DNA from: Amycolatopsis pithecellobii | GTDB lineage: Bacteria; Actinomycetota; Actinomycetes; Mycobacteriales; Pseudonocardiaceae | Assembly: GCF_009707865.1 (NCBI RefSeq) | Contig: NZ_WMBA01000020.1 | Span: 1 to 64,000 of the forward strand | DNA length: 64,000 nucleotides | Direction: 5' to 3' | Part shown: positions 19,473 through 31,494 of the stretch, one piece after another | Layout: each line of letters begins with the position of its first letter | Position numbering within the stretch: position 1 is the stretch's first letter | The notes under the pieces: generated by a model | Databases searched by the model: none | What the model was told of the DNA's origin: nothing | The model's input: the letters and a program-made list of their open reading frames with translations, nothing else | Made by a program: the position numbers and the translations under genes

Positions 19473-20336
19473 CTACTCCCGGCCGGAGAGCCGGGCGACC
19501 AGCTCGATCAACGCCCCGTGGTCGAGGCGGCCGTGTCCCTGGGCTTTCAGCGAAGCCATCAGCTGCGAGACCACCGCGCCGAGCGGGATCACGACCCCGG
19601 CTTCCCTGGCGGCGGCCTGCACGATGCCGAGGTCCTTGTCGTGCAGCTCGACCCGGAAGCCCGGGGTGAACTCCCGCCTGATCATCGCGGCCGCCTTGCG
19701 GTCGAGGATGCGGTTCCCGGCCAGGCCGCCGGCGAGCACCTTGATCGCCGCTTCGGTGTCCACGTCGTGCGCTTCGAGGAACACCAGGGACTCGGCGACC
19801 AGTTCGATCGTGCCCGCCACGATGAGCTGGTTCGCCGCCTTGACGGTCTGCCCGGCACCGGCGGCGCCGACGTGCACGACAGTGCTGCCGACCGCGTCGA
19901 GGACCGCGCGGGCGGCGGCGAAGTCCGCGGCCGCGCCGCCGACCATGATCGACAAGGTGCCTTCGATCGCGCCCTGCTCACCGCCGGATACGGGCGCGTC
20001 GAGCGCCCGGATGCGCCCCGCGATCTCGCGCGAGACGTCGGGCCGGATGGTGCTGCAGTCGATCAGCAGCGTGCCGTCCCCGGCATGGGCCAGTACGCCG
20101 TCCTCGCCGAGGACGACCGCTTCGACGTCGGGTGAATCGGGCAGCATGGTGATCACGACGTCCGCGTCCGCGACGGCTTCGGCGACACTGCCGGCACCAC
20201 GCCCGCCGGCCTCGACGAGCTTGTCCACTTTGGCCGCGCTGCGGTTGTAGCCGGTGACCTCGAACCCGGCCTGGACCAGGTTTGCGGCCATCGGGCCGCC
20301 CATGATGCCGAGGCCGATGAAGCCGATCTTCGTCAT
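19473..20336 (-). CDS. 2-hydroxy-3-oxopropionate (tartronate semialdehyde) reductase
   Basis: Reduces tartronate semialdehyde to glycerate with NAD(P)H, channelling glyoxylate carbon into glycolysis. The 287-residue beta-hydroxyacid dehydrogenase starts MTKIGFIGLGIMGGPMAANL, the dinucleotide fold, with NRSAAKVD next. The substrate motif is LDAPVSGGEQGA, and the catalytic lysine is in GQTVKAANQLIVA. Overlap with hyi and closeness to allB support the glyoxylate role; related 3-hydroxyisobutyrate dehydrogenases differ little by sequence. Common symbols are glxR or garR. Confidence 0.88.
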   Translation of the reverse strand: MTKIGFIGLGIMGGPMAANLVQAGFEVTGYNRSAAKVDKLVEAGGRGAGSVAEAVADADVVITMLPDSPDVEAVVLGEDGVLAHAGDGTLLIDCSTIRPDVSREIAGRIRALDAPVSGGEQGAIEGTLSIMVGGAAADFAAARAVLDAVGSTVVHVGAAGAGQTVKAANQLIVAGTIELVAESLVFLEAHDVDTEAAIKVLAGGLAGNRILDRKAAAMIRREFTPGFRVELHDKDLGIVQAAAREAGVVIPLGAVVSQLMASLKAQGHGRLDHGALIELVARLSGRE

Positions 20337-21118
20337 CGCTGTCCTTCCAGCCAGCCGAACGAGTCCTCGGTGCGCCCGCTCGGCCGGTACTCGAGGCCGA
20401 CGTATCCGTCATAACCTGCCGACGCGAGTTTCGCCAGGTAGCCGGTGATGTCCAGGGTGCCGGTGCCAGGCTCCTGCCTGCCGGGAACGTCCGCCACCTG
20501 GACGTGACCGATCCGCGGGGTGTGCCGCTCGATCACGGCGTCCAGATCGTCACCGTTGGTGCCGAGGTGGTACAGGTCGAACAGCAGTGTGACGTTGTCC
20601 CGGCCCAGCTTGTCGAGCACGGCGAGCGCGTCGGCCGCGGTCCGGAGTGGATAGCGGTCGGCACCCGAGAGCGGTTCGATGGCCAGCCGCGCACCGATCC
20701 CGGCGGCCGCGGCGGCTGCGGAGTCCAGTGTGGACAGTGCGTGCTCGTCCTGCGCGGCGGGTTCCTGCCCGTCGATGCGGTTGCCGTACAAGGCATTGAA
20801 GGTGCGGCAGCCCAGTTGACCGGCGATACCGACGGCGATGTCCACACTGTCCGCCAGCTCCTTCTCACGGCCGATCCACGACACGATGCCACGATGACCC
20901 GCCGCCAGGTCATCGGCGAAGAAGTTCAGGCCCGCCAGAGTGACGCCGGCGTCGGCGACCGACCGGACGAACTCGTCGACCTCGCGGTCACCGGGCGCCG
21001 CCGTGTCGAACGGCCACCAGTACTCGACGGCGGTGAAACCCGCCGCGCGGGCGGCTTCGGCGCGCCGGCGCAGCGGAAGCTCGGTGAACAGGATCGAAAG
21101 GTTGGCATCGTATCGCAC
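20333..21118 (-). CDS. hyi: Hydroxypyruvate isomerase
   Basis: Interconverts hydroxypyruvate and tartronate semialdehyde. The 261-residue TIM-barrel protein starts MRYDANLSILFTELPLRRRAE, followed by GFTAVEYWWPF. Conserved blocks include GLNFFADD, FNALYGNR, IEPLS, LFDLYHLG and HVQVADVPGRQEPGTG, all typical of the Hyi family. The frame is open far upstream, but similarity begins at the GTG at 21118. It heads the minus-strand operon, 52 bases from the divergent uraD. Confidence 0.9.
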   Translation of the reverse strand: MRYDANLSILFTELPLRRRAEAARAAGFTAVEYWWPFDTAAPGDREVDEFVRSVADAGVTLAGLNFFADDLAAGHRGIVSWIGREKELADSVDIAVGIAGQLGCRTFNALYGNRIDGQEPAAQDEHALSTLDSAAAAAAGIGARLAIEPLSGADRYPLRTAADALAVLDKLGRDNVTLLFDLYHLGTNGDDLDAVIERHTPRIGHVQVADVPGRQEPGTGTLDITGYLAKLASAGYDGYVGLEYRPSGRTEDSFGWLEGQR

Positions 21119-21170
21119 GGTTCCAGCTTCGCCGGTCGCATCGTGGGCGTCAACGGGATACGGTGCGGTG

Positions 21171-21632
21171 ATGACAGCCGACCTTGGCGGATTCAACAAC
21201 ACGCCGCCGGCCGAGCTCCGGCCGGATCTCGTGGCGTGCCTGGATGTGCCGCGGTGGGTGGAAACCGTGCTGACCGGCCGGCCGTACGCCGATCTGGCCG
21301 CATTGAAGGCGCGGGCGAACCTCACGCTGGAGCCCGGCGAAATCCGTCGCGCGATGGCCGCGCATCCCCGGATCGGCGAGAAGACCGGCGGTGTTCCGGC
21401 GATGGAACAATCCGGTGTGGACAGTGCCGGCGCGGAGAAGTTCCGTATCGCCAACGTCGAGTACGAAGCGCGATTCGGGCACGTGTACCTGGTCTGCGCG
21501 ATCGGTCGCAGCGGGGAGGAACTGCTGGACGACCTGCACAGCCGGATGGCCAACGACCCGGACACGGAACTCGCCGTCGCCGGACGCGAACTGGTGAAGA
21601 TCGCCTTGCTGCGCCTGGAAAAACTGGCATGA
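21171..21632 (+). CDS. uraD: OHCU decarboxylase
   Basis: Decarboxylates 2-oxo-4-hydroxy-4-carboxy-5-ureidoimidazoline to (S)-allantoin, the last step from urate. The 153-residue protein includes the signature AHPRIGEKTG, with the catalytic histidine, and FGHVYLVCAIGRSGEELL. GGFNNTPPAEL at the N-terminus is also typical. The start is the ATG at 21171 (a GTG precedes it). uraH overlaps its stop by four bases, then the urate oxidase gene follows: all three enzymes from urate to allantoin are together. Confidence 0.93.
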   Translation: MTADLGGFNNTPPAELRPDLVACLDVPRWVETVLTGRPYADLAALKARANLTLEPGEIRRAMAAHPRIGEKTGGVPAMEQSGVDSAGAEKFRIANVEYEARFGHVYLVCAIGRSGEELLDDLHSRMANDPDTELAVAGRELVKIALLRLEKLA

Positions 21633-21943
21633 GCCTGGTGACGACGCATGTCCTCGACGCGGCGGCCGGCCGGCCGGCGCCCGGCATCCCGGTGCAGCTG
21701 GAAACCGGCGGGCAAATCATCGCGCACGGGCTCACCGACGTGGACGGCCGGATCCGTGACCTCGGCCCGGACCAGCTCGTACCCGGCGTCTACCGGCTGG
21801 TCTTCGACACCGGAAATTACCTTGGCCCCGAAGGGTTCTTCCCGGAAATCATCGTGAGCTTCCGGATCACCGACGGCGCCGCGCATCACCACGTGCCGAT
21901 CCTGCTCAGCCCGTTCGCCTACTCCACCTACCGAGGGAGCTGA
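21629..21943 (+). CDS. uraH: 5-hydroxyisourate hydrolase (transthyretin-like)
   Basis: Hydrolyses 5-hydroxyisourate to OHCU. The 104-residue protein begins MSLVTTHVLDAAAGRPA, with the conserved histidine in THVLD. It continues with LTDVDGRI and FFPEIIVSF and ends in HHHVPILLSPFAYSTYRGS, whose C-terminal YRGS is diagnostic of active HIU hydrolases rather than true transthyretins. It is translationally coupled to uraD. Confidence 0.95.
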   Translation: MSLVTTHVLDAAAGRPAPGIPVQLETGGQIIAHGLTDVDGRIRDLGPDQLVPGVYRLVFDTGNYLGPEGFFPEIIVSFRITDGAAHHHVPILLSPFAYSTYRGS

Positions 21944-21949
21944 CCGGCC

Positions 21950-22822
21950 GTGGCCATCACCTTGGGCCCCAACCAGTACGGCAAGGCCGAAGTCCGCTTG
22001 GTCACGGTAAACCGCAACGGGCCGGTGCATTCGATCAAGGACCTCACGGTGTCCACCTCCCTGCGTGGTGACCTCGCGGCGACGCATTTGGCCGGTGACA
22101 ACAGTGGTGTCGTGGCCACGGACACCCAGAAGAACATCGTGTACGCCTTCGCGAAAGAAAGTCCGGTCGGTGAGATCGAGGACTTCGCGCTGCGGCTGGG
22201 CCGGCATTTCGTGCGCGAATACGACACCATTACCGGCGCTCGAATTCTCATCGACGAGCACGGTTGGGAGCGCATCACGGTCGACGGCAAACCACACGAT
22301 CACTCGTTTTCCCGTGCCGGCAAGGAAAAACGGACCACCGCGGTGACCGTGGACGGCGACCGCACGTGGGTCGTTTCGGGGCTGCGGGATCTGGTGGTGC
22401 TGAAATCCACCGGCTCGGAATTCCACGGCTTCCCGCGTGACAAATACACCACTCTGCCCGAGACCGATGATCGAGTGCTCGCCACGGCCGTCACCGCGCG
22501 CTGGCGATATCAGGGTCCGGTTCCCGACTGGGGCACGAGCTTCGCCGAGATCCGGCGGATCATGCTGGAGAAGTTCGCGACGCTGCACAGCTATTCGCTG
22601 CAGCAGACGTTGTACGCGATGGGCGAGGCGGTGCTGGCCGAACGCGCCGAGGTGGCCGAGATCCGGTTGTCACTGCCCAACAAGCACCATTTCCTTGTCG
22701 ATCTCAGCCCGTTCGGGTTGGAGAACGACAACGAGGTCTTCTACGCCGCCGACCGCCCGTACGGTCTCATCGAAGGCACCGTGCTGCGTGACGACGCCGA
22801 GGATGCCGGTCTGGCTTGGTGA
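21950..22822 (+). CDS. pucL: Urate oxidase
   Basis: A cofactor-free oxidase that turns urate into 5-hydroxyisourate. The 290-residue protein has the family's first block LGPNQYGKAEVRLVTVNR and the catalytic threonine region VVATDTQKNIVYAFAKE. It also has GSEFHGFPRDKYTTLPET, RWRY and LPNKHHFLVDL. Length matches bacterial uricases (about 290-300). The GTG start is six bases after uraH. It ends tail-to-tail with the xanthine dehydrogenase gene. Confidence 0.95.
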   Translation: MAITLGPNQYGKAEVRLVTVNRNGPVHSIKDLTVSTSLRGDLAATHLAGDNSGVVATDTQKNIVYAFAKESPVGEIEDFALRLGRHFVREYDTITGARILIDEHGWERITVDGKPHDHSFSRAGKEKRTTAVTVDGDRTWVVSGLRDLVVLKSTGSEFHGFPRDKYTTLPETDDRVLATAVTARWRYQGPVPDWGTSFAEIRRIMLEKFATLHSYSLQQTLYAMGEAVLAERAEVAEIRLSLPNKHHFLVDLSPFGLENDNEVFYAADRPYGLIEGTVLRDDAEDAGLAW

Positions 22823-22847
22823 ACACCTAGGTCCCGGTCAGGTGTTC
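22821..22847. terminator. Hairpin spanning two convergent stop codons
   Basis: A perfect 8-bp inverted repeat, GAACACCT (22821-22828) and AGGTGTTC (22840-22847), with an 11-base loop. It covers the stop of pucL on the plus strand and of pucD on the minus strand, which are only four bases apart. It is plausible as a shared bidirectional terminator, but the stem is short and has no U-tract. Confidence 0.35.
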
Positions 22848-25073
22848 CGGACGGACCGGGACGCGGGTCAGTGCCTTGCCAGTGGCCGCGCGGATCGCCG
22901 AGACGATCGCCGGGGTGGACGAGATCGTCGGCGGCTCGCCGACACCACGCACCCCGTACGGCGCATGGGGGTCGGCCAGCTCCAGCACGTCGATCGACAT
23001 CGGCGGCATGTCCAGTACGGTCGGGATGAGATAGTCGGTGAACGAGGGATTACGGATTTTCCCTTGCTGTATCTGGATTTCCTCCATCACGGCGAGCCCG
23101 AGTCCCTGCGCGGACCCGCCCTGGATCTGACCGACCACGGCCTGCGGGTTGAGCGCCTTGCCGACGTCCTGCGCGCAGTCGAGCGCGACGACCTTGACCA
23201 GCCCCAGCTCCACGTCGACATCGACCACAGCCCGGTGCGCGGCGAAACCGTACTGCACATGGGCGTTCCCGGCGCCGGTCTCGGGATCGAGTGTCTCAGT
23301 AGGACGGTGGTGCCATTCGATCGTCTCATCGATCGCGGTGTCACCCAGTACTTCCACCACATCCACGCCCGGCGCGGCCGCCAGCCGGGCCGACAGTGCT
23401 GAGCGCACGGCGAGACTCGCGGCCCGCACCGCGCCCCCGGTCACGTAGGTCTGCCGGGAGGCCGAAGTGGACCCCGCATTGCCGATTGTGGTGTCCATCG
23501 GCAGGATCGTCACCCGCTCCACACCGAGTTCGGTCCGCACGATCTGCTGCACCACGGTGACCAGGCCCTGCCCGACCTCGCATGCCGCCGTCTGCACCGT
23601 GGCCGCCGGCTCGCCGCCGACGACTTCCAGCCGCACGCGCGCGGTGGCATAGTCGTCGAAGCCTTCGGAAAAGCAGATGTTCTTGATCCCGACCGCATAA
23701 CCGATCCCGCGCACCACGCCTTCGCCGTGCGTCGTGTTGGACACCCCGCCGGGCAGCGTGCGCAAGTCCGGTTCGGACGGTGGCGAGGGCGGCAACGGCT
23801 TGGCTGCCACCCGTCGCAGCAGCTCCGCGACCGGCGCGGCCGAGTCCACCACCTGGCCGGTCGGCATGACCGAACCTTCGCTCATCGCGTTGCGGACGCG
23901 GATCTCGACCGGGTCCAGTCCGCACGCGTCGGCGAGTCTGTCCATTTGCGACTCGTAGGCGAAAGCCGCTTGCACCGCACCGAATCCCCGCATCGCGCCA
24001 CACGGTGGGTTGTTGGTGTACGCACCCCAGCAGTCGATCGACACGTTCGGCACGTCGTACGGGCCGACCCCGAGCGTCGCCGCATTCGCCACCACAGCAG
24101 CGGTTGACGAGGCGTACGCGCCGCCGTCGAGATAGATACGCGCCTTGACGTACACCAGTTTCCCGTCGCGGTCGGCGCCGTGCTCGTAGTGCAGCGTCGC
24201 CGGATGCCGGTGCACGTGGCCGTAGAAGGATTCCTCGCGGTTGTACACCATCTTCACGGGCTTGCCGGTGCGCAACGCGAGCAGGCAGGCATGCACCTGG
24301 ATGGACAGATCCTCGCGGCCGCCGAACGCGCCACCGACCCCGCCGAGGGTCAGCCGCACCTTCTCCTCCGGCAGCCCCAGCGCGGCCACGATCTGCCGCC
24401 GGTCCACATGCAACCACTGGGTCGCGACGAACAGGTCGACGCCGCCGTCCTCCGCCGGGACCGCGAGCCCCGACTCCGGGCCGAGAAACGCCTGATCCTG
24501 CATGCCGACCTGATACGAGCCGGTGACGACGACCTCGGCCTTCGCGTCCCCGCGCCCGCCGGCGCCAGAGGCATCGAACAGAGCACCACGGCGGATCGGC
24601 ACCTGCCGCACGACATTCCCGCCGGGATGCAGATGGGGCGCCTCCCCGGAAACCGCTTTCTCGGCGTCCGTCACGGGTCCGAGCACCTCGTAGTCCACCC
24701 GGATCCGTTTCATCGCACGGCGTGCTGTCTCCGGATGATCGGCGGCGACGAGCGCCACCGGCTCACCCTGATACCGCACGACGTCCACGGCGAGCACCGG
24801 CTGATCGGGATGCTCGAGACCGTACCGGTTCACGCCGGGCACGTCCTCATGCGTCAGCACGGCGTAAACCCCTTGTACAGCAACGGCTTCGGTGACGTCG
24901 ATTGCCTTGATCCTCGCGTACGGATGGGGACTGCGCAGCGTCGCGCCCCAGATCATGTCCTCATGCCACAAATCCGAGGAATAGGCGAACTCGCCGCGCA
25001 CCTTGACCGTGCCGTCGGGACGGCTCGGGCTCGTCCCGATCCCGTTCTCGGTGACGCGCTCGACAGTGGTCAT
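22827..25073 (-). CDS. pucD: Xanthine dehydrogenase, molybdopterin-binding subunit
   Basis: The large subunit that binds the molybdenum cofactor and oxidises hypoxanthine and xanthine to urate. The 748-residue protein begins with the a/b-hammerhead domain (VKVRGEFAYSSDLWHEDMIWGATLRSPHPYARI, split around residues 23-55). It continues with GGVGGAFGGREDLSIQ, PCGAMRGFGAVQAAFAYE and EVGQGLVTVVQQI, and ends with GVGEPP and the active-site glutamate region. Separate Mo, FAD and Fe-S subunits are typical of the Bacillus-type PucCDE enzyme. Its start overlaps the deaminase stop by four bases. Confidence 0.93.
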   Translation of the reverse strand: MTTVERVTENGIGTSPSRPDGTVKVRGEFAYSSDLWHEDMIWGATLRSPHPYARIKAIDVTEAVAVQGVYAVLTHEDVPGVNRYGLEHPDQPVLAVDVVRYQGEPVALVAADHPETARRAMKRIRVDYEVLGPVTDAEKAVSGEAPHLHPGGNVVRQVPIRRGALFDASGAGGRGDAKAEVVVTGSYQVGMQDQAFLGPESGLAVPAEDGGVDLFVATQWLHVDRRQIVAALGLPEEKVRLTLGGVGGAFGGREDLSIQVHACLLALRTGKPVKMVYNREESFYGHVHRHPATLHYEHGADRDGKLVYVKARIYLDGGAYASSTAAVVANAATLGVGPYDVPNVSIDCWGAYTNNPPCGAMRGFGAVQAAFAYESQMDRLADACGLDPVEIRVRNAMSEGSVMPTGQVVDSAAPVAELLRRVAAKPLPPSPPSEPDLRTLPGGVSNTTHGEGVVRGIGYAVGIKNICFSEGFDDYATARVRLEVVGGEPAATVQTAACEVGQGLVTVVQQIVRTELGVERVTILPMDTTIGNAGSTSASRQTYVTGGAVRAASLAVRSALSARLAAAPGVDVVEVLGDTAIDETIEWHHRPTETLDPETGAGNAHVQYGFAAHRAVVDVDVELGLVKVVALDCAQDVGKALNPQAVVGQIQGGSAQGLGLAVMEEIQIQQGKIRNPSFTDYLIPTVLDMPPMSIDVLELADPHAPYGVRGVGEPPTISSTPAIVSAIRAATGKALTRVPVRPEHLTGT

Positions 25074-26401
25074 CGCAGGCTCCGGGCGGCACTGGCTAGT
25101 TCAGCGGCAAGCGTGCTTTCATCCGCGGTACGCAGTTCTCCTTCCGCCACCACGGTTTCGCCGCCGACCATGAGCAGTTTCAGCGGCGGCGTCGCGGCCA
25201 GCACCAGTGCCGCGACCGGGTCCTCGATGCCCGCGTAGCGCAGGCCGGTGAGGTCCCACACCGCGAGGTCGGCGAGCTTCCCGGGCTCCAGTGAACCCAG
25301 TTCTTCTTCCCTGCCAAGGCATCGGGCACCACCGATCGTGCCCATGCGCAACGCTTCGCGGACCGTCAGCGCCGTCGGGCCGCCGCGTTGCCGCGCCTGC
25401 AGCAACGCCTGATGCAGCTCCTCGCCAAGGCCGCCGCACTCGTTCGACGCGGCGCCGTCGACGCCGAGACCGACCGGCGCGCCCGCGTCCAGCAGATCCC
25501 GCACCGGCGCGATTCCCGTGCCCAGCCGTCCATTCGACGTCGGGCAGTGCGCGGCGCCGGTACCGGTCGCACCGAAGCGGCGGACCGCGGCCGGCGCGAG
25601 GTGCACCGAGTGTGCCAGCCAGACGTCCTCGCCGAGCCAGCCCAGCTTGTCGGCGTATTCGGCCGGGGTGCACCCGAACTCGTCCTGGCACTGCCGTTCC
25701 TCGTCGAGGGTCTCGGCGAGATGCGTGTGCAGCCGGACTCCCTTGCGCCGCGCCAGTTCCGCCGCGCCGGTCATCAGGTTCCCGGTCACCGTGAACGGCG
25801 AGCACGGCCCGGCTGCGATGCGAATGCGCGCGTTCGGTGCGGCGTCGTGGTAGGTGTCGATGGCCTGCTCGGTGCCGAGCAACGTGGCCTCGGTGTCCTC
25901 GACGAGATGGTCCGGCGGCAGTCCCCCGTCCGACTCGCCGCGGTCCATCGAACCGCGGACGAGATGCACGCGAACGCCGAGGCGCCGGGTTGCCTCGACC
26001 AACGCCGCGATCTGGTCGCCGCCCTCGCGCGGGAACACATAGTGGTGATCGGCGACGGTCGTGCATCCGGTCAGCGCTAGGCGGGCCAGCCCGGCGCTCG
26101 CGGCGGCCTGCGTGACGCCCGCGTCAAGCCGCCCCCAGATCGGGTACAGCTCGACGAGCCACTGGAACAACGTCGAGTCGGCGGCGAGCCCGCGGGTCGC
26201 CCACTGGTACAGGTGGTGGTGGGTGTTCACCAAGCCCGGCGTGATCAGGCAACCGGATACGTCGATCCGCACGTCGCCCTCGACGGTGCCAGGACCGACC
26301 GCGACGATCCGCTCGTCCTCGATCACCACGTGGCCGTCGCGATATTCCGTGTCCTCGGCGTCGACGGTCGCGATCGCCGCACCGGTCAGCACCGTCCTCA
26401 T
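25070..26401 (-). CDS. 8-oxoguanine deaminase
   Basis: An amidohydrolase that converts 8-oxoguanine to urate, feeding the same pathway as xanthine dehydrogenase. The 443-residue product begins MRTVLTGAAIATVDAEDTEY. Metal ligands are in LVNTHHHLYQWATRG, LHTHLAET and LAHSVHLAP, and the catalytic aspartate is in LGVDGAASNE. The motif NTHHHLYQ with TLFQWLVELYPIW is typical of the 8-oxoguanine deaminase/hydroxydechloroatrazine ethylaminohydrolase group. A guanine deaminase activity cannot be excluded. The start codon at 26401 overlaps the Fe-S gene's stop by four bases. Confidence 0.88.
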   Translation of the reverse strand: MRTVLTGAAIATVDAEDTEYRDGHVVIEDERIVAVGPGTVEGDVRIDVSGCLITPGLVNTHHHLYQWATRGLAADSTLFQWLVELYPIWGRLDAGVTQAAASAGLARLALTGCTTVADHHYVFPREGGDQIAALVEATRRLGVRVHLVRGSMDRGESDGGLPPDHLVEDTEATLLGTEQAIDTYHDAAPNARIRIAAGPCSPFTVTGNLMTGAAELARRKGVRLHTHLAETLDEERQCQDEFGCTPAEYADKLGWLGEDVWLAHSVHLAPAAVRRFGATGTGAAHCPTSNGRLGTGIAPVRDLLDAGAPVGLGVDGAASNECGGLGEELHQALLQARQRGGPTALTVREALRMGTIGGARCLGREEELGSLEPGKLADLAVWDLTGLRYAGIEDPVAALVLAATPPLKLLMVGGETVVAEGELRTADESTLAAELASAARSLR

Positions 26402-26856
26402 CGGACCGCCGCCATCCTGACCGCGTCCAGGATCTTCTCGTAACCCGTGCAGCGGCACAGGTTTCCGGCCAGCGCCTCGCGGATCTCCTCGTCGCTCGGG
26501 TCCGGCACCCGGTTCAGCAGGTCGTGTGCCGCGACGATGAGACCCGGCGTGCAGAATCCACACTGGACGGCACCGGAGTCCAGAAAGGACTGTTGCACCC
26601 GGTCGAACCCGTCACCTTCGGCCAGACCTTCGACCGTGCGCACCACCCGGCCTTCCGCCTGCCCGGCCGCGACCAGGCACGAGCACACCGGCACGTCGTC
26701 CAGATACACCGTGCACGAGCCACATTCCCCTTGCTCACAAGCGTTTTTCGACCCCGGCAGGCCAAGCCGCTCACGCAGCACGTACAGCAGGCTCTCGCCT
26801 TCCCAGACGTCGTCGGCCTGCCTGGCCTCGCCGTTGACGGTCACGTTCAGGCGCAT
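26398..26856 (-). CDS. Xanthine dehydrogenase, [2Fe-2S] subunit
   Basis: The electron-transfer subunit with two iron-sulfur clusters. The 152-residue protein has the plant-ferredoxin-type cluster CEQGECGSCTVYLDDVPVCSC at about residues 39-59 (four cysteines), and the second cluster in CGFCTPG and LAGNLCRCTGYEKI. I set the start at the ATG at 26856 because AAGGTAGG lies just upstream; the longer frame reads into the insertion element. It should directly follow the FAD subunit gene, but an IS110 remnant of about 1.2 kb now separates them. Confidence 0.93.
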   Translation of the reverse strand: MRLNVTVNGEARQADDVWEGESLLYVLRERLGLPGSKNACEQGECGSCTVYLDDVPVCSCLVAAGQAEGRVVRTVEGLAEGDGFDRVQQSFLDSGAVQCGFCTPGLIVAAHDLLNRVPDPSDEEIREALAGNLCRCTGYEKILDAVRMAAVR

Positions 26857-26879
26857 GCGTTGTCCTACCTTCTTTGTTG

Positions 26880-28115
26880 GGTCTGAACTGGTCATTCGTA
26901 GGATCGGTGGACCCTGGGGCTCCGGTATGGCTCGCATGGTTCCGCCGCAGTGAAGGCTGAAAGGACTTGGCCGCCCGGGCCCCCGCGACGACTCGACCGC
27001 TCATTGGGATACGCGTGGATCGCTGTGCAGGACATCGTCGGCGTGGTCGTCTGTGGGCGATCGACCTGAACAGCGGCGGTGCCGCGCTGCTGATCGGCCT
27101 GCTGGTCAACCACGCCCAGGAATTGGTCTATATCACCGGGTTGAAGGTCCACCGCGCTGCCGGAACCTACCGGGGCGAAGGGAAAACCGACGCGAAAGAC
27201 GCGTTCGTCATCGCCGACCAGGCCCGCCTCCGCCGCGACCTCGGCCCGTTGCGGGCCGGGGACGAGATCGCGGTGGACTTGCGGACCCTGACCAACCGGC
27301 GCACCGACCTGGTCTGCGACCGCACCCGGGCGATCAACCGGATCGGCCACCAACTGCTGGAGTACTTCCCCGCACTGGAACGCAGCCTCGACCCCTCCCG
27401 CAAAGGACACCTGGTACTGCTGACAGAACACCAGACCCCGGACCGAATCCGGCGACTTGGCGAGCAACACCTGACCCACTGGCTGCAGCACCGCAAGGTC
27501 CGCAAAGCCGAATCGGTCGCACACGCGGCCATCGAAGCCGCCGCCACGCAGCACACCACGCTGCCCGGTCAGAAACTCGCCGCCGCGATGGTCGAACGGC
27601 TGGCCAAGCGGACGATAGCCCTCAACGCCGAAATCGCCGAAATCGCCGAAATCGACGCGATGATCGAGGAACGGTTTCGCCAGCACCGCCACGCCGAGGT
27701 GATCCTCACCCTGCCCGGTTTCGGCCCGACTCTCGCTGCGGAATTTCTCGCCGCCACCGGCGGCGAGATGACCGCGTTCGGCTCGGTCGACCGTCTCGCC
27801 GGCTACGCCGGGCTCGCCCCGGTTCCCCGTGATTCCGGCCGAATCCGCGGCAACCTGCGACGACCTCGCCGCTACCACCGCGGTCTGCTGCGGGCCTGCT
27901 AGCTCGCCGCCTCGGCCAGCTTGCCCAGCTGCCCGATCTCCAAGGCCTACTACCAGCGCAAACACGCCGAAGGCAAACGACACGAACAAGCCCTGCTCTG
28001 CCTCGCCCGCCGACGCCTCAACGTCATATGGGCCATGCTCCGCGACGACGCTGACTACCACGCTTCACCCCCGATCCCGGTGGCTGCGTGACTTGACAAT
28101 CCCCATTGGGAAGTC
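26880..28115 (+). mobile_element. Decayed IS110-family insertion element
   Basis: The approximate extent of an IS110-family element inserted in the xanthine dehydrogenase operon. The evidence is the transposase remnant inside it and the break in the otherwise tight gene order between the FAD and Fe-S subunits. The C-terminus of the FAD subunit also continues for about 18 unusual residues into this DNA. IS110 elements usually make no target duplication and lack long terminal repeats, so the ends cannot be set exactly. I place the left end between about 26873 and 26925 and the right end near 28100-28122. The sequence upstream of the transposase is where a bridge RNA would be encoded in an intact element. 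Confidence 0.7.
26967..28091 (+). pseudogene. IS110-family transposase, inactivated
   Basis: Similarity starts abruptly at WAIDLNSGGAALLIGLL (from about 27056). It includes the DEDD-domain block GKTDAKDAFVIADQARLRRDL, then the helical linker and the C-terminal domain LTLPGFGPTLAAEFLAATGG and RLAGYAGLAPVPRDSG with the serine region. The N-terminal part, with the first catalytic aspartate, appears to be missing. After the codons for RAC an in-frame TAG at 27900-27902 interrupts the gene. The same frame then stays open to a TGA at 28089-28091, encoding SKAYYQRKHAEGKRHEQA and LCLARRRLNVIWAML, which belong to an intact protein. The TAG probably replaced a Tyr codon. Confidence 0.85.
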
Positions 28116-28955
28116 CTTTCCGAGAAGCTCCTGCCAGGCCCAGCCGAGCGTGCGCCGGGCAAGGACGGACAGTGCGTGCCTGCGATAGGCGGCGGTGCCG
28201 CGGACATCGTCGATCGGCTCCGCCGCCGCGGCGACGAGCTCACCGAACCTGCGCCCGACCGAGTCCGGCAGCGGCGAGCCCCACGGCAGCTCGGCGCTGA
28301 GGAACTCCTCCGCTTCCCGGACCCGGCGCGGCGTAGGCGCCGCGGACCCGATGGCCGCCCGCACGCGGTGGTCTTCGATGGCGATCGCGAACGAGCACAC
28401 CGCGATGACCATCGCATTGCGGGTGCCGACCTTCGAGAACTGCTGCGCTCCCGCACGGACCGGCAGGTGCACCGCCGTGATCAACTCATCGTCGGCCAGC
28501 GCATTTCGTTTGACACCCACATAAAAATCCTCGGCCGGGATGAGCCTGGTACCACGTGTCGACGAGGCTTCGATCCGCGCACCGGACACGAGCAGCACGG
28601 GATGCGTGTCCCCGGCTGGCGAGGCCGCGCCGAGATTGCCACCGACCGTGCCCCGGTTGCGGATCTGCGGTGAGCCGACCGTCCTGGATGCCATCGCCAG
28701 ACCCGGCAACCACTCGCCCAGCTCGGCGATGACCCTTGTGTAGGGCACACAGGCGCCGAGCCGGACCTGTGCGTCCGAAGTGGACCATCCGGCGAGCTCG
28801 CCGATACCGGTGAGATCGAGCAGGGCAGCCGGGCGGCGGTGGTCGAAGTTCAATTCGACCATCACGTCGGTACCGCCCGCGATGGGTACCGCGTCCGGGC
28901 GCTCGGCCTTCAGGGCCAGCGCCTCGGCGAGGGTCCGGGGCCGCAGGAAATCCAC
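28065..28955 (-). CDS. Xanthine dehydrogenase, FAD-binding subunit (IS-altered C-terminus)
   Basis: The 296-residue FAD subunit of the molybdenum hydroxylase. It begins MDFLRPRTLAEALALKAE. The FAD-binding PCMH fold shows VPIAGGTDVMVELN and the double motif SPQIRNRGTVGGNLGAASPAGDT (split around residues 96-118). The C-terminal domain includes AAIGSAAPTPRRV. The start is the GTG at 28955. The family-like sequence ends near LGWAWQELL; the last 16-18 residues, GKDFPMGIVKSRSHRDRG, are read from IS110 DNA, so the natural C-terminus has been replaced. Whether the protein still assembles is uncertain. Confidence 0.88.
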   Translation of the reverse strand: MDFLRPRTLAEALALKAERPDAVPIAGGTDVMVELNFDHRRPAALLDLTGIGELAGWSTSDAQVRLGACVPYTRVIAELGEWLPGLAMASRTVGSPQIRNRGTVGGNLGAASPAGDTHPVLLVSGARIEASSTRGTRLIPAEDFYVGVKRNALADDELITAVHLPVRAGAQQFSKVGTRNAMVIAVCSFAIAIEDHRVRAAIGSAAPTPRRVREAEEFLSAELPWGSPLPDSVGRRFGELVAAAAEPIDDVRGTAAYRRHALSVLARRTLGWAWQELLGKDFPMGIVKSRSHRDRG

Positions 28956-29053
28956 CTGGTCAGTAGAACGCCGCCACCCGCGCGACGGCAACGGCACCAA
29001 AGTATGAACCGAAGCGCCCGGTCAGGCCTGTAGTTGGTGCTTTCCCACGAACG

Positions 29054-29650
29054 CTACTGCGCCTTCGGCACGTAGAACGCCGTCGTGCGTTCCGCGGCTG
29101 CCTTCGCCTGCGCCGGGTCCTCACCGGACGCTTCGTGTGCCGCGCGCCAGGCGGCGGCGCTGGCGGTCATGAGCTCCCCCGCCTCGGGCGAGGATTCCCA
29201 GCCCTCATGCGGTCTGTCCACTCCGGCCAGATGCAGCGCGAGTCCGAAAACGGTGAGATCCCAGCCGACGCCCACCGCACCCGGCCCGAACTGCTCCCAG
29301 AACTTCTCGTCCACATCGCCGGAATGCTCGAGCACGAACTTCGTGCCGCTGTCGATGGAACTCAGCCGCACCTCGACGAAAGTCGCCGCCGCATCACCGA
29401 AGATCCAGCTCACCCGCAACAGCCGGGGCCGCTCGCACTTGAGGATCTCCCCGCCGGCATTGCCTTCGAGCTGATAGCGGCCGCCAAGCCGCAAGTCACC
29501 GCTGACCGGCAGGAACCAGCGGCCGATGCGCTCGGGATCGGTGCAGGCGCCCCACACGTCTTCGATCTCCGCCGGGTATTCGCGCTGGAGCACCACGACC
29601 CGGCCACGCACCTCCCGGCGGATGGCGTTGATCTCCCCGGCGATGTCCAT
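29054..29650 (-). CDS. SRPBCC/AHSA1-like domain protein
   Basis: A 198-residue protein of the START-like (Bet v1) fold, related to Aha1-type proteins. EYPAEIEDVWGACTDPERIGRWFLPVSGDLRLGGRY is the typical N-terminal half, and VLEHSGDVDEKFWEQFGPGAVGVGWDLTV the ligand-cavity part. The ATG at 29650 shares one base with the stop of the ArsR gene, forming the common ArsR-SRPBCC pair. The ligand is not known. Confidence 0.85.
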   Translation of the reverse strand: MDIAGEINAIRREVRGRVVVLQREYPAEIEDVWGACTDPERIGRWFLPVSGDLRLGGRYQLEGNAGGEILKCERPRLLRVSWIFGDAAATFVEVRLSSIDSGTKFVLEHSGDVDEKFWEQFGPGAVGVGWDLTVFGLALHLAGVDRPHEGWESSPEAGELMTASAAAWRAAHEASGEDPAQAKAAAERTTAFYVPKAQ

Positions 29651-29985
29651 CACGTCCCCTTCCGTCGTTCTCGTTTGCCTCGTGCCAGCTCGGTGCCCAG
29701 CGCGTCGAGGCGCTGGTTCCAGAACCCGCGGAACCTTTCCAGCCACGCGTCGACCTCCACCAGCGGAGCACTGTCCACTGTGTACAGCCGACGCGCCCCC
29801 TCGGCACGCACCGTGGTGAACCCGTTCTCCCGCAACACCCGCAGATGCTGGGACACCGCGGGCTGGGAAATGCCGAACTCGTCCCGGATGGCCGCGCCGA
29901 TCGCCCCCGACGTCTGCTCTCCCGCCGCCAGCAACTCGAGAATGCGGCGGCGCACGGGATCGCCGAGAACATCGAACGCGTGCAC
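29650..29985 (-). CDS. ArsR-family transcriptional regulator
   Basis: A 111-residue winged-helix repressor. It starts MHAFDVLGDPVRRRILELLAAGEQ. The recognition region is FGISQPAVSQHLRVLRENGFTTVRAEGARRLYTVD. No cysteine metal-binding motif is present, so it is unlikely to sense metals; it belongs to the subgroup paired with SRPBCC proteins. A palindrome just upstream (30004-30022) is its likely operator. Confidence 0.9.
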   Translation of the reverse strand: MHAFDVLGDPVRRRILELLAAGEQTSGAIGAAIRDEFGISQPAVSQHLRVLRENGFTTVRAEGARRLYTVDSAPLVEVDAWLERFRGFWNQRLDALGTELARGKRERRKGT

Positions 29986-30003
29986 CGGCCGATAGTCTCA
30001 GTG

Positions 30004-30022
30004 CTTGCTTATATAAGTCAAG
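30004..30022. promoter_or_regulatory. Palindromic operator for the ArsR regulator
   Basis: CTTG-CTTATATAAG-T-CAAG: a perfect 10-bp palindrome flanked by CTTG and CAAG arms. It is strikingly AT-rich for this genome. It lies 19 bases upstream of the arsR start and 33 bases before the divergent pucR start, so it could control both. Direct binding is inferred. Confidence 0.5.
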
Positions 30023-30054
30023 GCTTAAATCGGTCGGGTAGGATCGAGAAGGCC

Positions 30055-31494
30055 ATGACTTCCGTGCGGACCTTGCTCGAGATCCCGGAGCTGCGCCTGC
30101 GGCTGCGCACCGGGTCGGCCCTCCTCGGCCGCGAGATCACCCGCATCTACGGGACCGAGCTACCCGATCCCGGCCGGTACGTCTCCACGGGCGAGCTCGT
30201 GTTGACCGGTCTGCTCTGGTGGCGCGAGCCCGGCGACGCCGGTCCCTGGGTCGCCGCGCTGGCTGAAGCCGGGGTCGCCGCGCTGGCCGCGTCCGGTGCA
30301 GACACTTCCGGGATTCCCGAAGACGTCATCCAGGCCTGCGCGCGGCACCGGATCCCCCTGCTGGAGGTGCCGGCCGACCTGTCGTTCGCGGTGATCACCG
30401 AACGCGTCGTGCTCGCGCTGGCGGCCGGCCGGGGACGCGAGCCGAGCGGGGCACGCAAACGCCTACTGTCCACAGCGGACGCTCCACTGCCCGTACTGTT
30501 GCGGCAGGGCGCGGAAGAACTCGGCGCGGCGTGCTGGGTGCTGTCCGGTACCGGGCGTGTCGTCGGCGGGACCTCGCCGGAAGCGCCGCCGGTCGAGTGG
30601 TTCACCCCGGGCAGCGAACGCACGGTCCACGACGAGTATACGTTGCTGCCCATCGACGGGCGGTTCAGGATCCCGTGGATTCTCGCGGTGCGTTCACCCG
30701 AGGCGGACGACCTGACCGACGAGCTCGCCGGCCTGGTCAGCCTCGCCCGCGCTCGTGCCGAGGAGATCCGCCGGATGGCCGACCGGGCGGCCGAGCCACT
30801 GTTCGCCACGTTGACGGGCGGCCCAGGTGATCTGGCGGCTGCGTTCGCTGCCTCGGGCCGCGTGGCCCCGGCACGAGTGGTGCTGGTGCGGACACCCGGC
30901 AGCGACCTCGCGCGAGAGCTGCTGACCGAAGTGCTCGCCGAAGTGCCCGTGTCGTTCGGGGCACTCGGCGAAGACGCCTGCGCGATCGCGGAGGTCGACC
31001 CGCAGTGGCCCCCGAACTGGACGTCGAGCGCCCGGCATCGTCTGTCCACTGTGGCCCGGTTCACCGATGCTCCCCGCGTGTTCGCCGGGGTGAGCGGTCC
31101 GGCCACAGTGGACGGTCTGCGTGGCGCCGCTCAGGAGGCGTTGCACGCCCTGGAACTGGCGGCTCGCCGCGGTGAACCGGTGGCCGTCGTCTCAGGTGAG
31201 GATGTGGCGGTGCATCGCCTGCTGATCGCGGGCGCACCCGACGACCTCCGGCGATCGGTGCGGGAACGGGTGCTCGGTCCGCTGCTGGCCTACGACGCCG
31301 CACAGGGCACGGACCTGGTGCGGACCGTGCGGGTGTTCCTCGAATGCGCCAGTTCTCCCACCGCGGCCGCGAAGGCGCTACATGTCCACGTGAACACCTT
31401 GCGCTACCGCATCACCCGCGCGTCGGAACTGCTGGGCTTGGACCTCAGCGATTTCGCCACACAGGTGGACGTCTACCTCGCGCTCCAGGCATAA
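30055..31494 (+). CDS. PucR-family transcriptional regulator
   Basis: A 479-residue regulator of the purine catabolism type. The N-terminal PucR domain (about 1-125) begins VRTLLEIPELRLRLRTG. A GGDEF-like middle follows, and the C-terminus has the helix-turn-helix CASSPTAAAKALHVHVNTLRYRITRASELLG. In Bacillus, PucR controls uptake and breakdown of purines, and the position beside xanthine dehydrogenase genes supports the same target here. I chose the ATG at 30055; the open frame extends upstream across the operator region. Confidence 0.88.
   Translation: MTSVRTLLEIPELRLRLRTGSALLGREITRIYGTELPDPGRYVSTGELVLTGLLWWREPGDAGPWVAALAEAGVAALAASGADTSGIPEDVIQACARHRIPLLEVPADLSFAVITERVVLALAAGRGREPSGARKRLLSTADAPLPVLLRQGAEELGAACWVLSGTGRVVGGTSPEAPPVEWFTPGSERTVHDEYTLLPIDGRFRIPWILAVRSPEADDLTDELAGLVSLARARAEEIRRMADRAAEPLFATLTGGPGDLAAAFAASGRVAPARVVLVRTPGSDLARELLTEVLAEVPVSFGALGEDACAIAEVDPQWPPNWTSSARHRLSTVARFTDAPRVFAGVSGPATVDGLRGAAQEALHALELAARRGEPVAVVSGEDVAVHRLLIAGAPDDLRRSVRERVLGPLLAYDAAQGTDLVRTVRVFLECASSPTAAAKALHVHVNTLRYRITRASELLGLDLSDFATQVDVYLALQA

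What the first reader, a model, noticed from the sequence alone, without database searches (positions are those of the whole stretch)
26860..28122. IS110 insertion splits the xanthine dehydrogenase operon and rewrites the FAD subunit C-terminus
FAD and Fe-S subunit genes are normally adjacent. Here about 1.2 kb of IS110 DNA lies between them, the FAD subunit ends with about 18 residues read from the element, and the Fe-S gene keeps only its ribosome binding site. Expression and subunit balance of xanthine dehydrogenase may be impaired while 8-oxoguanine deamination could still feed urate oxidase.
Basis: partly seen in the sequence, partly recalled or inferred. Interest (0 to 1): 0.6.

Follow-up and report, generated by a model that had tools for sequence, protein, structure and literature searches.

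The report
Mobile element inserted in ribosome-binding site
A broken bacterial jumping gene sits between two genes of a purine-degrading enzyme, exactly in the ribosome-binding site of the second gene, and its end supplies a replacement site; its relatives carry a guide RNA sequence matching such gene-start signals, which would explain why this group of elements lands there.

Summary
Confirmed: a 1,248-bp IS110-family remnant (26866-28113) separates the FAD and Fe-S subunit genes of a xanthine-dehydrogenase-type operon. In 80 of 80 named relatives these genes overlap or lie 1-4 nt apart; in 19 of 19 congeneric loci they overlap. The element replaces about four FAD residues with 15 (reader: ~18). 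Correction: Fe-S did not simply keep its ribosome-binding site. The insertion cut it; the element's left end gives Fe-S a new one (computed pairing -10.0 before, -9.1 kcal/mol after). This reflects a targeting rule: of 27 related copies with both ends mapped, 17 lie between a Shine-Dalgarno and the start codon of an open frame, against 1.8% of random sites. The predicted bridge RNA carries CATG and Shine-Dalgarno guides that match each element's own target beyond permutation. IS900's published target is of this kind. The copy is dead (200-bp deletion, amber stop). Operon genes are intact, though Fe-S dN/dS is slightly above relatives', so impairment is unproven. Known kind of element; the guide-RNA reading was in no paper found.

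The parts
28065..29000 (-). FAD subunit gene of the xanthine-dehydrogenase-type operon; its last 15 codons and stop (28065-28112) are element DNA
   Evidence: NCBIfam XdhB is the best hit but below its cut-off
28114..28121 (-). host Shine-Dalgarno GGAAAGGA, originally of the Fe-S gene, left on the FAD side
   Evidence: compare L016 GGGAAGGACTCCGCATG
26866..28113 (+). IS110-family element remnant, 1,248 bp, TCC on both sides
   Evidence: 92% identical to a full-length element in G229
26862..26874 (-). hybrid ribosome-binding site of the Fe-S gene: AAGAAGGTA from the element, GGAC from host/core
26398..26856 (-). Fe-S subunit gene
26910..27048 (+). predicted bridge RNA in the left end; conserved stem around a target loop
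   Evidence: 30 pairs, 5 with compensatory changes; no Rfam match up to E = 1
26933..26942 (+). left target guide, CGCATGGTTC (contains CAT, the start codon complement); exact borders uncertain
26959..26966 (+). right target guide GAAAGGAC; seven of its letters are host letters at the FAD-side junction, the eighth is the first element base there
27002..27009 (+). putative donor guide CATTGGGA, same letters as the element's right end
   Evidence: by eye
27051..27057 (+). CTGTGGG, scar of a 200-bp deletion that removed the transposase N-terminus
   Evidence: G229 has CTGTGGG at 185 and 385; DEDD model matched only from position 49
27051..28091 (+). transposase remnant, N-terminus missing, amber TAG at 27900-27902
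28093..28098 (+). TTGACA near the right end; with TACCTT at 26866-26871 it could form a promoter across the circle junction (18-nt spacer)
   Evidence: read by eye; by analogy to passages of PMC11208160
25070..26401 (-). 8-oxoguanine deaminase, next gene of the operon (start taken inside the longer listed frame)
   Evidence: NF006055 634.4 bits, cut-off 532
22827..25073 (-). molybdopterin subunit (pucD-type) of the operon
   Evidence: TIGR03196 823.5 bits, cut-off 783.65

Best explanation
An IS900-type IS110 element inserted, guided by its bridge RNA, into the translation start of the Fe-S subunit gene. The RNA's target loop copies such a start: CATG on one side (start codon) and GAAAGGAC on the other (Shine-Dalgarno). 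Recombination fell inside the Shine-Dalgarno. The host half stayed with the FAD gene, whose frame now runs 15 codons into the element; the element's left end (AAGAAGGTA on the minus strand) gave the Fe-S gene a new ribosome-binding site at suitable distance. The copy lost its transposase by a deletion between 7-bp repeats and carries an amber codon. Shown by sequence: position, ends, hybrid site, degeneration, the targeting rule among relatives, guide-target matching. Inferred: RNA expression and action, near-normal Fe-S initiation, loss of translational coupling, order of events.
For: Uninterrupted locus in 80 of 80 and 19 of 19 relatives. Of 27 copies with both ends mapped (35 examined), 19 have a Shine-Dalgarno at the right junction, 18 a start codon with an open frame at the left, 17 both; random window sites 11%, 16%, 1.8%. 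Guide-target identity 111 of 153 host positions over 17 distinct guides, permutation mean 66.7, maximum 91 in 50,000; for five central positions of the 14 Shine-Dalgarno guides 57 of 70 against mean 31.4, maximum 53. Left guide 115 against mean 88.5, 0 of 20,000 as high. Both guides lie opposite each other in a loop closed by a stem with compensatory changes. In the window the rebuilt site scores -9.1 kcal/mol against -10.0 before and -5.5 on average with random left ends. IS900 motif CATGNNNNNNTCTCCTT (PMC8141618, passages).
Against: Six of 27 copies belong to element groups whose right target is not a Shine-Dalgarno, so the rule holds for a subgroup that I delimited after seeing targets. Of the other 21, three lack a start codon or long frame at the junction and two a strict Shine-Dalgarno tetramer. 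The spacing from CATG to the cut varies, so the left-guide register is loose. The permutation does not correct for kinship among elements. Repair is uneven: in 7 of 21 copies the new site is no better than with a random left end (26-41% of random ends as good), and only 8 of 19 are as strong after as before; in the window 10% of random ends do as well. No RNA or expression data. The held sets have one genome per species, so the empty site of this very strain is inferred.
Confidence: 0.88

Rival explanations
1. Ordinary IS110 insertion at an unrelated sequence; the Shine-Dalgarno location is chance.
For: One insertion alone could fall anywhere; intergenic sites are tolerated, so survivors are biased to gene borders.
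Against: 17 of 27 copies against 1.8% of random sites, and guides match their own targets rather than others'. Survival bias cannot produce guide-target covariation.
Confidence: 0.04
2. As the title of Doran 1997 says for IS900, the element seeks translation signals in order to express a reverse-strand gene, hed, from the host's Shine-Dalgarno.
For: An ATG lies 7 nt inside the right end, after the host junction, in 27 of 28 right ends mapped (absent in G090a; also absent in C56 and G003d, seen but not carried on). Six of 21 Shine-Dalgarno-type copies (three of them the same element in G003) have a frame of 397-512 codons from it.
Against: Fifteen of 21 have only 10-62 codons; the window copy has 13. 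Where the frame is long it is codon-aligned antisense to the transposase and open merely because TTA, CTA and TCA codons are absent; the shuffle test cannot judge it. The ATG also lies in right-end letters copied by the putative donor guide.
Confidence: 0.07
3. The operon is being lost: the insertion silenced Fe-S and downstream genes.
For: Lost stop-start overlap; 1.25 kb of reverse-oriented element in the message; FAD paralogues elsewhere are distant (28-36% identity); Fe-S window pairs have dN/dS 0.074-0.087 against 0.017-0.062 in relatives.
Against: All genes without internal stops, dN/dS of the other three genes within or close to the relatives' range, rebuilt ribosome-binding site, no terminator-like site. 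A very recent insertion would look the same, though the element's decay argues against very recent unless it arrived decayed.
Confidence: 0.15

Closest known systems
IS900 (Mycobacterium avium subsp. paratuberculosis, IS110 family)
   Same: Target with CATG on one side and a Shine-Dalgarno complement on the other: CATGNNNNNNTCTCCTT published (PMC8141618, passages) against CATGCGTTGTCCTTTCC here; left end with a similar stretch (published ACCTTTCTTG, here ACCTTCTTTG)
   Different: Window copy is shorter and dead, in a different host, without a long reverse-strand frame; its right end carries an ATG, while IS900's hed frame is described as lacking a start codon. IS900 itself was not in hand; a G328 copy has 23 of 24 of its published left-end letters
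IS621 and bridge RNAs of the IS110 group
   Same: Long left end with an RNA whose first loop matches the target on both strands (PMC11208160, passages); possible circle-junction promoter
   Different: Target here is a translation start, a signal present at many genes. Not assayed
ISEc21 and other seekRNA elements (PMC11187229, passages)
   Same: Upstream non-coding region (IS110 type) matching both strands of the target
   Different: Other targets; IS900 is not mentioned in that text

Membership tests
IS110 family (IS110 subgroup) | DEDD transposase with Transposase_20 C-terminus | tested here: met
   Both Pfam domains; NCBIfam NF033542 136.9 bits, just under its cut-off of 140, in an N-terminally deleted copy
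IS110 family (IS110 subgroup) | Long non-coding left end with bridge RNA, short right end | tested here: met
   (predicted RNA, not observed)
IS110 family (IS110 subgroup) | Catalytically complete transposase in this copy | tested here: not met
   200-bp deletion of the N-terminus and amber codon; the family label concerns descent, the copy is a remnant
IS900-type elements | Target is a start codon plus Shine-Dalgarno, in fixed orientation | tested here: met
   Window site and 16 further copies, 17 of 27 in all; only this orientation was scored
IS900-type elements | Left end similar to IS900's published segment | tested here: inconclusive
   Only a 24-letter segment was available; a copy with 23 of 24 of its letters shows the same layout
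IS900-type elements | Long reverse-strand hed frame | tested here: not met
   13 codons from the right-end ATG here; long in 6 of 21 Shine-Dalgarno-type copies. I file the window copy as IS900-type by target and layout only
Bridge RNA | Expressed, bound by the transposase, directs recombination | not testable with these tools
   Needs RNA and recombination assays
Xanthine dehydrogenase (Xdh/Puc type) | FAD, Fe-S and Mo subunits | tested here: met
   pucD model above cut-off for the Mo subunit; XdhB and XdhC models are best hits but below cut-off. Substrate not tested

The most novel reading that the evidence does not exclude
A group of IS110 elements, IS900 included, carries bridge RNAs whose target loop is a copy of a bacterial translation start (start codon plus Shine-Dalgarno). 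It can thus land at very many genes, and in many copies its left end restores a ribosome-binding site to the gene it lands in front of, so insertions in operons are tolerated. This would give a guide-RNA basis for a target preference long known for IS900.
Probability: 0.5. Interest if true: 0.65.

Novelty: new member of a known kind. Interest (0 to 1): 0.5.

Why it matters
The split operon itself is a natural experiment on translational coupling in a three-subunit enzyme. The wider point is that an RNA-guided recombinase appears to use the ribosome-binding site as its address and, in many copies, to leave a usable one behind. That makes the target choice of IS900-type elements directly testable by swapping guide letters, and suggests how such elements can enter operons at low cost to the host.

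Tried and rejected
Rfam search of 25800-29200 gave no match up to E = 1, so the bridge RNA rests on alignment, not on a curated model. Promoter and terminator scan of 26300-29900 found none; the promoter pattern may miss actinobacterial promoters. A codon-shuffle test of the hed frame was uninformative where the frame is codon-aligned, because the shuffle cannot create stops there. The reverse-strand 389-aa frame at 26892-28061 was rejected as a gene for the same reason.

Literature: 'IS900' with 'bridge RNA' gave 0 papers, 'IS900' with 'ribosome binding site' and 'insertion site' 0, a six-term set 0. Searches gave listings (8, 20, 11 and 2 rows), from which I opened five papers, passages only: PMC8141618, PMC2775157, PMC7823733 (not used), PMC11208160, PMC11187229. 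Subscription papers are missing from that library, so absence in print is not shown. Doran 1997 was seen only as a title in two reference lists; the older consensus CATGN4-6*CNCCTT is recalled.

Rows dropped: 8 of 35 copies lacked one or both mapped ends (C56, G003d, G005c, G090a, G090b, G274b, G277, G279). Two partial own-genome copies fetched (L013, L014) and the weaker hits were not carried into the survey. In one search, 2 of 23 copies had no start codon and 2 more no right end. Six of 515 plasmid records with a match were opened: the three Mycobacterium copies show both sides of the layout; of three Streptomyces copies, NBC_01454 and NBC_01001 show a guide matching the right flank (AAAGG and AAAGAA) with the left end unmapped, and NBC_01643 could not be mapped.

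Full report
Locus. The window belongs to a 7.9-Mb genome whose nearest named relatives at this operon are Amycolatopsis. On the minus strand lie an FAD subunit gene (28065-29000), an Fe-S subunit gene (26398-26856), an 8-oxoguanine deaminase (25070-26401) and a molybdopterin subunit (22827-25073). Upstream on the plus strand is a PucR-type regulator (29845-31494). Between FAD and Fe-S is IS110 DNA whose transposase frame runs on the plus strand.

Observation. I compared the junction in 80 named relatives (the best 80 of 451 found). In 71 of 80 the FAD stop codon lies inside the start of the Fe-S gene, in 9 of 80 the gap is 1-4 nt, and in the window it is 1,208 nt. All 19 loci in the 18 other held genomes of the genus overlap too (these sets share species). 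None has the window's tail. L016 ends ILGKDSACA; the window reads LLGKD and then 15 residues of element DNA. Relatives vary in length and sequence after the WAW motif, so the changed tail probably matters little (inference).

Ends and the ribosome-binding site. Comparison with a copy in another congener (G016a) and others gives element ends at 26866 and 28113 with TCC on both sides. Read on the minus strand, the host sequence before the element is GGAAAGGA, corresponding to the Shine-Dalgarno that in L016 reads GGGAAGGACTCCGC-ATG. After the element comes AAGAAGGTA (element), then GGACAACGC-ATG of Fe-S. The insertion therefore cut the ribosome-binding site, and the element's left end completes a new one. 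Computed pairing with the 16S tail is -10.0 kcal/mol for the joined flanks and -9.1 after insertion; random left ends average -5.5, and 10% do as well. Over the 19 copies with both values the means are -11.2 before and -9.6 after; random left ends average -6.7 over 21 copies. The repair is uneven: 8 of 19 are as strong after as before within 0.5 kcal/mol, and in 7 of 21 copies (G235, G170, G040, G262, G041, G124a, G124b) the new site is no better than random. The repair may be a by-product, since the same left-end letters serve as donor site and probable -10 half of a circle promoter.

State of the copy. Against a full-length relative (G229, 92% DNA identity) the window copy lacks 200 bp between two CTGTGGG repeats, removing the transposase N-terminus, and has TAG where the relative has Tyr. 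It is not autonomous. Its left-end RNA region and both ends remain.

Targeting rule. A left-end search found 20 of 297 genomes of the family with a match, own genome included. With congener and own-genome copies I examined 35 copies, of which 27 have both ends mapped. Nineteen of 27 have a Shine-Dalgarno tetramer within 8 nt of the right junction, 18 a start codon with an open frame of at least 60 codons at the left, 17 both. For 20,000 random sites in the window the fractions are 11%, 16% and 1.8%. Six copies from other element groups (C87b, C114, G016b, G005a, G005b, G007) have none of these; without them, a split I made after seeing targets, the counts are 19, 18 and 17 of 21. Some copies are the same element at different sites (G003a-c, G290a-b, G186a-b, G124a-b).

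Guide RNA. The left ends align as a stem-loop; the consensus stem (columns 11-28 with 66-82) has compensatory changes, in 13 of 20 sequences at one pair, and its internal loop holds CATG-like letters on the 5' side and Shine-Dalgarno-like letters on the 3' side. In the window the 3' guide is GAAAGGAC; the FAD-side junction reads GAAAGGA (host) and C (first element base). Other elements carry AAGGAGC, AGGTGGC, GAGGAGGA, GAGAGGA and so on, at matching sites. Over 17 distinct guides, host positions match at 111 of 153 against a permutation mean of 66.7 and maximum of 91; for five central positions 67 of 85 against mean 33.4 and maximum 53; for the 14 Shine-Dalgarno guides alone 57 of 70 against mean 31.4 and maximum 53. 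The non-Shine-Dalgarno groups match their own different targets at 5-8 of 10 positions, as a guide should. The left guide also matches (115 against 88.5, 0 of 20,000), but its distance to the cut varies. This resembles the arrangement described for IS621 bridge RNAs (PMC11208160, passages).

Known kind. IS900's published motif is CATGNNNNNNTCTCCTT, and its reverse-strand frame hed is described as spanning the element without its own ribosome-binding site or start codon (PMC8141618, passages; Doran 1997 by title). I therefore place the element in the IS900 type by target and layout; direct comparison with IS900 was not possible. The hed idea fares less well: only 6 of 21 Shine-Dalgarno-type copies have a long frame there, and its openness follows from codon usage.

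Effect on the host. dN/dS between window and three relatives is 0.07-0.16 over four genes, against 0.02-0.20 among those relatives. For Fe-S, the gene right behind the element, all three window pairs (0.074-0.087) are above all three relative pairs (0.017-0.062); the changes are few (4 lineage-specific against 1 and 3). Lineage-specific changes are more numerous in the window for every gene (FAD 7 against 3 and 4; deaminase 13 against 7 and 11; Mo subunit 23 against 7 and 14), in keeping with its longer branch by dS, which I judged by eye. So there is no clear sign of decay, a faint hint in Fe-S, and a recent insertion would show little either way. Other FAD-type genes in the genome are distant (28-36% identity), so no close spare was found. 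Whether subunit balance suffers is open: coupling is lost, initiation is probably kept.

Verdict. The element is a new member of a known kind; the guide-RNA reading of its target is the part a specialist would want tested.

Noticed in passing
L012 (G000:C56:250689-251384): Another degraded copy in the same genome, 87-93% identical in pieces, with its left end not found.
   Followed up: partly
L151, L152, L153, L154 (G016b, G005a, G005b, G007): A related element group whose guide GAGTGA matches the right flank GTGAGTGA; left flanks in three genomes read GGATGACATC at the start of a frame beginning MTS, so the group may target one repeated gene.
   Followed up: no
26892-28061 (-): 389-codon reverse-strand open frame across the element; judged a by-product of GC-rich codon use.
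   Followed up: partly
L210 2571-2596: Two genes annotated as IS110 family transposases lie tail to tail on a Mycobacterium intracellulare plasmid, 24 nt apart.
   Followed up: no
20333-22588 (-): 751-aa protein in which Pfam recognises only a C-terminal xylose-isomerase-like barrel (residues 511-748); the first 510 residues have no match at E 0.001.
   Followed up: no
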